DNA from: Flavobacteriales bacterium
GTDB lineage: Bacteria; Bacteroidota; Bacteroidia; Flavobacteriales_D; Crocinitomicaceae
Direction of reading: 5' to 3'
Assembly: GCA_947497485.1 (NCBI GenBank)
Contig: CANMHB010000002.1
Location: 124,001-188,000 of the forward strand
Length of the DNA stretch: 64,000 bases
The notes below the pieces were generated by a model. It was not told the DNA's origin, did not search any database, and saw nothing but the letters and a program-made list of their open reading frames with translations. Below, one piece after another: positions 44,264-51,903 of the stretch; within the stretch, counting starts at the first letter, position 1; the number at the start of each line of letters is the position of its first letter. The translations under genes and the position numbers were made by a program.

Positions 44264-47200
44264 ATGCAAAAACGTTATTCTAAGGAGGATATAGACTCGG
44301 TTTTTAAAACCCATTTCGGGGAGCAAAGTCTAATTGTAATGGAATTAGATAAAAACAATTATTCCTATTATGTCGAAACGGCATTAATCAAAATTCAAGA
44401 TAGGAAAATAACCGAAAATGAATTAAGCGATTGGATTTCAACTATTCCTAGATTTCGCGAAGTTTTTATCTATGAAAAAATTGAACAGCCGTTGCGCGTT
44501 CGTTTAAAAAAAATTGAGCCCTCAATTCAGATTATTAATTCAAAAAACTGGAACGAATCAGAAATTTTTAATTGGTTGGAGTCACAAGACATTCGTTTTA
44601 ACATTCAACAAGGTCCTTTATTTCAATTCTATATTTTTGAAAACAGCGATTGTCAATTCCTGTCTTGTTGTTATCATCATCTGTTGTTTGATGCTATTTC
44701 AATACAACAAGTTTTTGCATCTCTACTTGGAAACTTTAAAATAAGTGAAAAAGAGTGGATTCCCAGAATTGATTCAAATACGCATAATAAAGTCAGTCTG
44801 CCCACTTTTCATTTGCAAAATTATGTCCCTGAGCCAAAAAACAATGATAAGGGCTTTTTGTATGAACCTCTTGAATTTAAAGGGGTTGAATACAACGATT
44901 TTATGACGAAGTGGATTGAATTCTTGTTTCTTGCCACCGGTCAAAAAAATATTTGTGTTGGAGAAGTTTTTAGCGCGAGAGGCATTGAACCGACGGCACA
45001 AAGCGCACTCGGTTATTTTGTCCAAACATGGCCACTTGTTTTTAAAAAAGAAAAGAATGACATTTCAAATCAACTCGATCAACAAAGATCTTTAATTATT
45101 TCACGATGTGACAAACCCGTTCAAAATTACTTTCATCACGGGGCGTTTGATCATTGCTGGGTGGTAGAACCAAAAGTGAATTCAGATATTAGAGCGGTAT
45201 TTCGTTCGAAACCACATTATGTTCTTTCCATTGTCATTCAGCCAAATGAAAACGGTACATCGATTTGTTTTGTTTGGAACTTAAGTAAAATCGCTAAACC
45301 TGCAGCAGAAGAAATTAGTGGGTCATTTATGAAATACATTTCGGGTGAAACTCAAAAAATGGTTTCATGTCCTACAAGTTATAAAAATAAACCCATTTCG
45401 GAAAATTGGTTAGAAAAAGTAAGTTTGAGCCCTGAAAAAATTGCTGTTAAGGACTCACAAGGGAATAAATACACTTACAAAGAACTCGATGACCTAGCCG
45501 AAAATCTAGCATCAAAAATGAACGTTGAAATTCAGGAACCCGTTGGAATCAGAACCTCAAATTCAGCTTCATTGATTATAGCGATACTTGCTGTTTTGAA
45601 AAAAAGAGCTATATACGTACCTCTTGATCCTGATATTTCCAAAGAGCGCCTAAATTTCATTCTTAATGATGCTGGGATTCAAACCATCGTATCAGATTTG
45701 GAACCAATTGAAAATATAGAAACCATTCACCCGCTTCAAGACATTAATTCATCGGACTCAATTGTAAATTTAACGGCCGATTTAAACGATATTTGTTACT
45801 TAATCTATACATCGGGAACAACAGGTAAACCGAAGGGCTGTTCAATTACCCACGCCAATTTAAGTAACCTATTTAAAGGGACATCTGTCAATTTTGATTT
45901 TTTGCCGAGCGACAGCTGGGTTCTAGCGCACAGTTATGGTTTTGACTTTTCAACTTGGGAAATTTGGGGAGCACTGTTGAATGGTTCTTCACTTTATATC
46001 CCTGATAGAATGGAAGTTAAAGATACTTTCAAGTTTTATGATTTGTTGCTCCGAGAGAAAATCACTGTTGTTAATCAAACTCCAAAATCATTTGAAAATT
46101 TAATGCTCGTTGGGGAATCCAAAGAGAAGTTGTCTAGTGTTAGGTATTTGATTTTTGGCGGAGACAAATTGAACTTTCAAAAAATTTCTAGCTGGAAAGA
46201 GGAAAACCCTTCTGTATCAATGGTGAACATGTATGGAATTACGGAAACAACTGTGCATGTTACATTCAAAGAAGTTTCATTTGATAAATACAGTAACATC
46301 GGAAAGCCTCTTCCAGGGTATTCTTTGGGTATTTTTAACAGCAATGGAGAGTTAGTTCCAGATGGTTTTTTAGGGGAACTTATCGTTGGAGGCGACGGAG
46401 TCTGTAACGGATATTTCAAAAATGAAAGCTTAACAATGGAAAAATTCTCGTTTTCATCTGTTCCAACATACAAAAGTGGAGACATTGGTTGGAAAATGAA
46501 AGGGGATTTTTTCTATCTAGGAAGAAATGATCGCCAAATAAAAATTAGAGGGCACCGCATTGAATTAGGTGAAATCGAATTTTTATTACAAGCTAAATTT
46601 GGAAGTCTTTTTAGAGTGCTTTTCATGAACGATACGATGCTTGTGGCTTTTCATACTTGTTCAACTGATTTAGACAGAACAATCAGTAAAGATATTTTAC
46701 CTGATTATGCGAATCCGTCCATTTTTGTTCGCTTAGACGAAATCCCGCTCAATGTTAACGGAAAAACGGATGAAAAAAGGCTCGAAGCCATTTTTAAATC
46801 GGAAGTTAATAAGAAGAAGGACAAGGAAAAGATAGAAATATTGCCTTACCTTTCCAAAATTCTAGGAAATGATTTTTCAACTGATAAAAGTTTCATCGAA
46901 AACGGAGGTGATAGCATCAGTGCAATTCGACTCGTTAATGCCCTTCGAAAAGAAGGCCTAAATCTTTCTGTTCAGGACTTATTTGCCGCTGCCAGTTTAA
47001 AAGAAATAAAATTAAGTAGGCTAACTATTCCGAAAGAAAATCAAAGTTGGAGGGATAATAAGGAAATTGAAACATTCAATCAAGCCAATGACGAATCAAT
47101 TATTGGATTATTTCCGCTGACAGATGCACAACAAGGAATTTTATTCGATAGTTTGTCTGGTGATGATAGTGTTTACATGGTTCAACTAACTTACCATGTG

Positions 47201-51058: not shown

Positions 51059-51903
51059 TGGAATCTGAATTAAAAAAAATCGTGGAGCAACTGGCTGTTA
51101 AAGGGCTTCGAACTGCCGGTGGGAATCGTTGGGAAGAAACAATGTCCTTGATGCAAAACCTAATTACTAACTACGCTAGTGAACCACAAATTCATGCTTG
51201 GATTGATGAAAAAGGATCTGAATATCGAAATTTTTCTTTGCGTTTTCAAGGGGAGTCCAAACGAAAAATCGTGATTGGAGCCCACTATGATACTTTTGAG
51301 GACACGCCAGGAGCAGATGACAACGCTTCAGCCGTTGCAGTTTTATTGGGTTTAGCAGAACTCTTAAATGCCCATAAGGAAAATTTTCCTTATGAAATCG
51401 AATTGGTTTTTTACGCTTGTGAAGAACCACCATTTTTTGGCACGGAGGGTATGGGAAGTTTCCATCATGCAAAAAAATGTACTAGGGAAAATACCTCATT
51501 AATGATTTGCTTGGAAATGGTTGGTTATTTCTCAGATGAAAAGGGGAGTCAAGAATATCCCATTGCTCCTTTAAAATTCCTATTTGGAACAAAAGGAAAC
51601 TATTTAATGCTCGTATCCAATTTTAAATCAGTAACTGCCCTTAGTAAATTATGGCGGATTTTTAAAAAATCAGATTTGTCGTATAAACGATTTGTGTCTC
51701 CTATTAAGTCTTTTGGATTAGACTGGTCTGATCATCGCAACTATTGGCTAAAAAAAATTCCAGCTATAATGATTACTGATACCTCGGTGTTTAGAAATGA
51801 TAATTATCATAAACTTACCGATACTCCGGACACACTTGATTATAAAAAAATGAATGTTTTAATTGAAGATCTTTTCCTCCTACTAAAAAAAATAAAGGTT
51901 TAA
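51058..51903 (+). CDS. M28 family metallopeptidase, no signal peptide, translationally coupled to the NRPS
   Basis: 281 aa; VIGAHYDTF, PGADDNASAVAVLLGLAELL, YACEEPPFFGTEGMGS, DNYHKLTDTPDTLDY; start overlaps NRPS stop as TAATG. Confidence 0.9.
   Translation: MESELKKIVEQLAVKGLRTAGGNRWEETMSLMQNLITNYASEPQIHAWIDEKGSEYRNFSLRFQGESKRKIVIGAHYDTFEDTPGADDNASAVAVLLGLAELLNAHKENFPYEIELVFYACEEPPFFGTEGMGSFHHAKKCTRENTSLMICLEMVGYFSDEKGSQEYPIAPLKFLFGTKGNYLMLVSNFKSVTALSKLWRIFKKSDLSYKRFVSPIKSFGLDWSDHRNYWLKKIPAIMITDTSVFRNDNYHKLTDTPDTLDYKKMNVLIEDLFLLLKKIKV

What the first reader, a model, noticed from the sequence alone, without database searches (positions are those of the whole stretch)
44264..51903. Compact stand-alone NRPS plus cytoplasmic M28 peptidase: possible undescribed N-acyl-threonyl-peptide pathway
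Sequence: one ORF carries C-A-T-C-A-T-C; its stop overlaps the start of an M28 peptidase (TAATG) that has no signal peptide. No thioesterase, reductase, MbtH, PPTase or exporter gene is adjacent. Knowledge: N-terminal C domains often add an acyl group (lipo-initiation), and terminal C domains can release by condensation or cyclisation. Inference: a short acylated dipeptide released by the terminal C domain, with the M28 enzyme maturing, recycling or detoxifying it.
Basis: partly seen in the sequence, partly recalled or inferred. Interest (0 to 1): 0.8.

Follow-up and report, generated by a model that had tools for sequence, protein, structure and literature searches.

The report
Displaced part of larger peptide assembly line
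The gene pair looks like a stand-alone peptide-making machine with its own peptidase, but comparison with a dozen relatives shows it is the second of four enzymes of a larger, apparently undescribed peptide-antibiotic-like pathway, whose remaining genes lie about 48,000 bases away in this genome, and the peptidase belongs to that pathway's core.

Summary
Window 44264-51058 is an intact C-A-T-C-A-T-C NRPS (N2), and its TAA stop overlaps the ATG of a cytoplasmic M28 metallopeptidase (51058-51903). The stand-alone N-acyl-dipeptide reading does not hold. 48 kb upstream, outside the window, the same contig carries three more NRPSs (N1, N3, N4 with the thioesterase), a PPTase, a methyltransferase, a PhyH oxygenase and a 4-hydroxyphenylglycine-type gene trio. 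In two relatives all four NRPSs, the trio, the PPTase, M28 and the methyltransferase form one contiguous cluster; in others most do. All 14 GTDB loci with a close M28 (>=48% identity) have N2 ending directly before it; no more distant M28 that I checked does. Where testable, their genomes carry N3 and the HmaS-like gene. N2 is therefore synthetase 2 of 4: its first C domain should accept Orn from N1, and its last C domain should pass the chain to N3. Predicted order: Orn-Thr-X-[A-less]-Y-Hpg?-Orn-[A-less]-TE. M28 keeps intact di-zinc ligands, lacks a signal peptide and co-diverges tightly with N2 (r=0.945). It is probably a dedicated processing or self-protection aminopeptidase. The cluster is patchy (8 of 90 genomes in the genus) and appears to be horizontally shared. 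Product and M28 substrate are unknown.

The parts
44264..51058 (+). N2: NRPS, C-A(Thr)-T-C-A(unknown code DAHWVTFVVK)-T-C, 2264 aa; predicted second synthetase of a four-synthetase pathway
   Evidence: orthologues in 13 other genomes
44324..45340 (+). C1 domain (aa ~21-359), motif HHLLFDA; predicted to accept Orn from N1
45428..46789 (+). A1 domain (aa 389-842), specificity code DFWNIGMVHK = Thr; the Thr code in all orthologues (one conservative change each in G065 and G066)
46874..46999 (+). T1 (aa 871-912), ENGGDSI
47111..48256 (+). C2 domain (aa 950-1331), HHLLMDG
48383..49744 (+). A2 domain (aa 1374-1827), code DAHWVT[FY]V[VI]K; conserved, substrate unknown
49835..49966 (+). T2 (aa 1858-1901), VGGNSI
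50027..51055 (+). C3, terminal C domain (aa 1922-2264): predicted two-lobe C fold, HHxxxD kept, C-terminal DFDF-type tail (candidate docking tail to N3)
   Evidence: Alignment A2, model pLDDT 79, fold search
51058..51903 (+). M28-family di-zinc peptidase, cytoplasmic, translationally coupled to N2; ligands H76, D88, E123, E153, H251 and base E122 kept in 28 sequences
43261..44187 (+). QueG (epoxyqueuosine reductase), chromosomal neighbour next to RuvB; not part of the pathway

Best explanation
N2 + M28 is a dislocated operon fragment of a four-synthetase NRPS pathway. Shown by sequence: domain order, codes, gene content and synteny. Inferred: N1 (C-A-T) loads Orn; N2 adds Thr and a third residue X; C3 of N2 hands the chain to the A-less T domain at the start of N3; N3 adds residue Y, epimerised by its terminal E domain; N4 adds an Hpg-like residue and Orn, then a last A-less C-T, and its TE releases the product. 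The HmaS-like, FAD-oxidase and aminotransferase genes supply 4-hydroxyphenylglycine, the cluster PPTase activates the T domains, and the methyltransferase and PhyH tailor the product. M28 is a dedicated cytoplasmic aminopeptidase of the pathway. It most likely trims the N-terminal part of the product, or clears aborted or self-toxic peptide. M28's substrate is inferred, not shown.
For: Own genome: N1, MT, N4 (TE), N3, PhyH, PPT, FAD oxidase, HmaS-like and AT at C2:98.8-120.0 kb; N2-M28 at 168.3-175.9 kb on the same contig. Contiguous in G060 (AT-HmaS-FADox-PPT-PhyH-N3-N4-N1-N2-M28-MT) and G062; largely so in G025 and G064. 14 of 14 genome loci with M28 >=48% id have N2; 13 of 14 pair-bearing genomes have N3, the exception G063 having a 4.2-kb M28 contig, and cluster-type HmaS is at >=58% id in 12, a 69% fragment in G071, and not seen in G063. 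A codes are nearly invariant at 35-60% protein identity, except N3, which has two types. N1, N2 and N3 end in short conserved acidic tails; N4 does not. M28-N2 distances correlate at r=0.945, above N2-N1 (0.83) and N2-HmaS (0.79). M28 fold and ligands.
Against: No product is known. In this genome the pair is 48 kb from the rest, so separate function is not excluded. C3 is divergent, with weak Pfam support and a moderate-confidence model. Two modules lack A domains and their loading is unexplained. Hpg is inferred from gene logic: the HmaS-like protein is still closer by sequence to solved HPPDs than to HmaS 2r5v. M28's role rests on linkage and fold only.
Confidence: 0.85

Rival explanations
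1. One reading: N2 + M28 is an independent pathway that makes an acylated dipeptide, released by the terminal C domain and processed by M28.
For: In this genome the pair is physically separate, with intact genes and its own locus between QueG and a 1722-aa ORF.
Against: In 12 of 13 pair-bearing relatives the genome also has N3, and in every relative whose N2 flanks could be read the pair sits next to, or (G061) within a few kb of, N1 or N4. C3 ends in a conserved docking-like tail. No lipo-initiation partner gene is present.
Confidence: 0.05
2. After relocation, N2+M28 has acquired a separate function in this lineage while N1, N3 and N4 make a shorter peptide.
For: The relocation is unique to this genome among those compared.
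Against: All four NRPSs are intact, the codes and the docking-like tail are unchanged relative to contiguous clusters, and the pair moved together with nothing added.
Confidence: 0.07
3. M28 is the self-resistance enzyme, degrading the mature peptide in the cytoplasm of the producer.
For: No exporter or other resistance gene was recognised as conserved in the clusters examined, while M28 is present beside N2 in every locus found. It is cytoplasmic with intact catalytic ligands.
Against: Its coupling follows N2 rather than the late genes, which suits an early or N-terminal substrate at least as well.
Confidence: 0.3
4. M28 is an N-terminal processing or editing aminopeptidase acting on intermediates from N1/N2 (trimming a leader residue or clearing misloaded chains).
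For: Translational coupling to N2 in all loci where the junction could be read, and the strongest co-divergence with N2. Fold neighbours are aminopeptidases and glutaminyl cyclases; GADDNAS-type ligands are aminopeptidase-like.
Against: No direct substrate evidence. M28 enzymes are not known to me to hydrolyse carrier-bound thioesters.
Confidence: 0.4

Closest known systems
Multi-protein type I NRPS pathways with 4-hydroxyphenylglycine (glycopeptides, CDA, ramoplanin/enduracidin type)
   Same: Multi-subunit NRPS line, Orn and Thr codes, an HmaS/oxidase/aminotransferase-like trio, a terminal TE, and A-less modules as in ramoplanin/enduracidin (the last from memory)
   Different: Bacteroidota hosts; only six A domains; the oxidase is GlcD/FAD-type, not FMN-type Hmo; no dedicated trans-acting A-T protein or exporter found; a core cytoplasmic M28 peptidase
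M28 aminopeptidases (Vibrio/Aeromonas AAP, Legionella LapA/LapB, Bacillus YwaD)
   Same: Fold (TM 0.6-0.75) and di-zinc ligand set with general base E122
   Different: 16-20% identity; cytoplasmic, NRPS-coupled, Glu153 in place of the usual Asp ligand; the clade of about 78 proteins is separated by a large score gap from other M28s
M28 glutaminyl cyclases (Bacteroides, Porphyromonas)
   Same: Same fold, similar Foldseek scores
   Different: M28 here keeps the GADDNAS-type zinc-bridging motif of aminopeptidases and has no signal peptide; cyclase activity not testable here
NRPS maturation or prodrug peptidases (PvdQ, ClbP/ZmaM type; from memory)
   Same: A hydrolase dedicated to an NRPS pathway
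   Different: Those are periplasmic Ntn or S12 hydrolases; this one is a cytoplasmic zinc peptidase

Membership tests
Type I modular NRPS | Repeated C-A-T modules with intact HHxxxD, A-core and carrier-serine motifs | tested here: met
Type I modular NRPS | Release domain (TE/R) in the pathway | tested here: met
   TE at the C-terminus of N4, not in N2
   N1 (C-A-T) is immediately upstream of N2 in most relatives and encoded elsewhere in this genome
Hpg-containing NRPS pathway | HmaS + hydroxymandelate oxidase + HpgT trio in the cluster | tested here: inconclusive
   HPPD/HmaS-superfamily gene scoring under the HPPD cut-off (217.7 vs 277) with a separate HPPD paralogue in the genome, a GlcD-type FAD oxidase and a class I aminotransferase, always together; HmaS-specific residues not verified
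Hpg-containing NRPS pathway | An A domain with a known Hpg code | tested here: inconclusive
   N4 A1 DIAHMGFVLK only partly resembles Hpg codes
Ramoplanin/enduracidin family | Same 17-residue scaffold, fatty-acid starter genes and a trans-acting A-T protein for the A-less module | tested here: not met
   Only six A domains; no FAAL/ACP starter genes or trans A-T protein found in the clusters
Peptidase family M28 | M28 domain and conserved zinc ligands | tested here: met
   PF04389 83.6 bits over cut-off 21.3; ligands invariant in 28 homologues
Peptidase family M28 | Aminopeptidase activity | not testable with these tools
   Needs biochemistry

The most novel reading that the evidence does not exclude
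An undescribed family of Hpg/Orn/Thr NRPS products from freshwater Bacteroidota, with two A-less modules, in which a cytoplasmic M28 peptidase acts as an obligatory partner of the second synthetase. It would edit or mature the growing or released peptide by zinc-peptidase chemistry, a role I found described for no NRPS pathway.
Probability: 0.3. Interest if true: 0.75.

Novelty: new variant of a known kind. Interest (0 to 1): 0.5.

Why it matters
Read alone, the pair suggests a dipeptide pathway. Read with the genome and its relatives, it defines a conserved, patchily distributed, apparently horizontally shared NRPS cluster family in mostly uncultured, often freshwater Bacteroidota, a group not known to me for Hpg peptides. 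The near-constant A-domain codes imply a conserved product and give a testable scaffold (Orn, Thr, Hpg). The core M28 peptidase and the A-less modules pose concrete biochemical questions. It also shows that cluster callers working on this genome would split one pathway into two.

Tried and rejected
Lipo-initiation and C-domain release: rejected on the position of N1, the tail of C3 and the TE of N4. A condensation domain split between N2 and N3: considered because C3 matches only the N-lobe part of my HMM and N3 begins with ~200 unassigned residues, but the C3 model covers both lobes and hhalign finds no link between N3's N-terminus and C domains. MbtH dependence: none in the genome. Clean empty site at QueG: RuvB-QueG is syntenic in relatives, but what follows differs from the window, so no clean empty site was found. 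HmaS versus HPPD by active-site residues: the paper consulted gave no usable residue list. N1's C domain against the PDB: no hit. Literature searches for M28 with NRPS, Hpg in Bacteroidota and Crocinitomicaceae NRPS gave nothing relevant.

Full report
Observation. The window's ORF at 44264-51058 (2264 aa, N2) and the overlapping ORF at 51058-51903 (281 aa, M28) are as described. The domain order C-A-T-C-A-T-C was confirmed with Pfam and with HMMs built here. Specificity codes extracted by alignment are DFWNIGMVHK for A1, the Thr code of DhbF2/bacillibactin synthetase, and DAHWVTFVVK for A2, which matches no code found in the papers consulted. Both carrier domains keep the Ser, and all three C domains keep HHxxxD.

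The pair is not alone. A search of the window's own genome (window = contig C2:124001-188000) for condensation domains found a second NRPS locus at C2:104-114 kb. Reading C2:90-124 kb gave, on the minus strand from 120.0 down to 98.8 kb: an aminotransferase, an HPPD/HmaS-like dioxygenase, a GlcD-type FAD oxidase, a PPTase, a PhyH oxygenase, N3 (1651 aa), N4 (2585 aa, with TE), a methyltransferase and N1 (899 aa).

Relatives join the two halves. Searching 60 relatives with N2 and with M28 found the pair in three same-genus genomes at 40-42% (N2) and 49-50% (M28) identity. In G025 the pair and the other locus form one 34-kb cluster, with the 905-aa N1 directly upstream of N2. A scan of 85,488 species genomes with the M28 alignment (degenerate patterns, then tblastn) gave 14 loci with M28 >=48% identical. 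In all 14 the M28 start follows directly on the preceding ORF; in 13 that ORF is recognisably N2, and in L072 it is an 86-aa fragment at the contig edge whose genome (G007) carries N2 on another contig. The next-best M28 loci that I annotated (<=45%) have no NRPS. Protein databases show the same gap: 78 proteins down to E 2e-102, then one fragment at 1e-79 (P0079) and more distant M28s from 5e-77. N3 is present in 13 of the 14 genomes searched. The cluster-type HmaS gene is there at >=58% identity in 12 and as a 69% fragment in a 13th (G071). The exception for both is G063, whose M28 lies on a 4.2-kb contig.

Complete contiguous versions are G060 (JAURFW010000002.1: AT-HmaS-FADox-PPT-PhyH-N3-N4-N1-N2-M28-MT) and G062 (CAINVS010000581.1, same without PhyH). 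Gene order elsewhere is plastic: N1-N2-M28 in most, N4-N2-M28 in G064, N2-M28 alone in the window genome. M28 never leaves N2 in any locus examined.

Assembly-line reading. Architecture (motifs): N1 C-A-T; N2 C-A-T-C-A-T-C; N3 [~200 aa unassigned]-T-C-A-T-E; N4 C-A-T-C-A-T-C-T-TE. Codes: N1 and N4 A2 DVGEIGSIDK (Orn), N2 A1 Thr, N4 A1 DIAHMGFVLK (partly Hpg-like, inference), N3 A DLFNHAWTYK in one group (one F-to-Y change in G062) and DFTK[IV]GEVGK (Asn-like) in another. Codes are nearly constant while whole proteins differ by up to 65%, which implies a conserved product. N1, N2 and N3 end in short conserved acidic tails (DIDDILSxLN, F[ED]DFDF, IDxxDxxxIxDLL) and N4 does not. This fits the linear order N1-N2-N3-N4 and makes chain release by N2 itself unlikely. 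The N2 C3 model (pLDDT 79) matches condensation domains over both lobes.

M28. AlphaFold2 with 28 homologues gives pLDDT 93. Fold neighbours are M28 aminopeptidases and glutaminyl cyclases. H76, D88, E122, E123, E153 and H251 are invariant in the clade. No signal peptide is evident, while two of the more distant homologues sampled carry leader or lipoprotein-like N-termini. Pairwise identities of M28 and N2 correlate at r = 0.945 over 11 genomes (Mantel p 0.0002), more tightly than N2-N1 (0.83) or N2-HmaS (0.79). I infer a dedicated pathway enzyme acting on the N2-side of the peptide or on the product. Trimming/editing and self-protection cannot be separated with these data.

Evolution. 8 of 90 genomes of the genus hold the clade M28, and 1 of 398 sampled Bacteroidota genomes (this one) does. 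RuvB of this genome is 84-88% identical to same-genus carriers but only 68-72% to G060-G062, whereas N2 is 55-59% identical to G060-G062 and 38-40% to the same-genus carriers. The simplest reading is horizontal exchange of the cluster type between distant Bacteroidota, followed by relocation of N2-M28 to a site beside the conserved RuvB-QueG pair in this lineage. No relative examined has an NRPS there.

Limits. No MIBiG or antiSMASH comparison, no chemistry. Hpg supply is inferred: the dioxygenase scores under the HPPD cut-off and each genome has a separate HPPD-like gene, but its best solved matches are still HPPDs. The two A-less modules and the N-terminal ~200 aa of N3 are unexplained. The separation of the two halves rests on one 286-kb contig.

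Noticed in passing
G000:C2:110157-115112 (L046:2157-7112, outside window): N3 begins with ~200 aa conserved among orthologues (motif WCKGN-NN-K in most) that match no C domain by hhalign, followed by a T domain with no A domain.
   Followed up: partly
G064:C43:62399-69016 (L175 from 14399) and orthologues in G065, G066, G068: N3 is ~2200 aa, with extra, apparently degenerate segments between C and A and between A and T, and an A code switched to an Asn-like DFTKIGEVGK: a candidate natural module swap or deletion.
   Followed up: partly
G000:C2:102403-110160 (outside window): N4 ends C-T-TE with no A domain in the last module, in every orthologue that reaches the TE.
   Followed up: no
G025:C2:28617-32568 and orthologues in G004, G007, G066: Some clusters insert a PhyH oxygenase, a WbsX-type glycosyltransferase, an amine oxidase and an SDR between M28 and the Hpg genes: possible glycosylated variants.
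   Followed up: no
L067:14801-16132 and L075:7989-9314: Two clusters carry an amidase-signature hydrolase near M28.
   Followed up: no
G021:C62:2541-9266 (L055): A same-genus genome has an unrelated NRPS with the repeated code DVWHYSLIDK (Ser-like, from memory).
   Followed up: no
window 52074-57242: 1722-aa protein after M28 with a leader peptide, repeated CxxP-type units and 204-bp and 45-bp tandem repeats; no Pfam match.
   Followed up: no
window 40728-41414 (-): Short CTP-synthase C-terminal-like protein (PRK06186 family, below cut-off).
   Followed up: no
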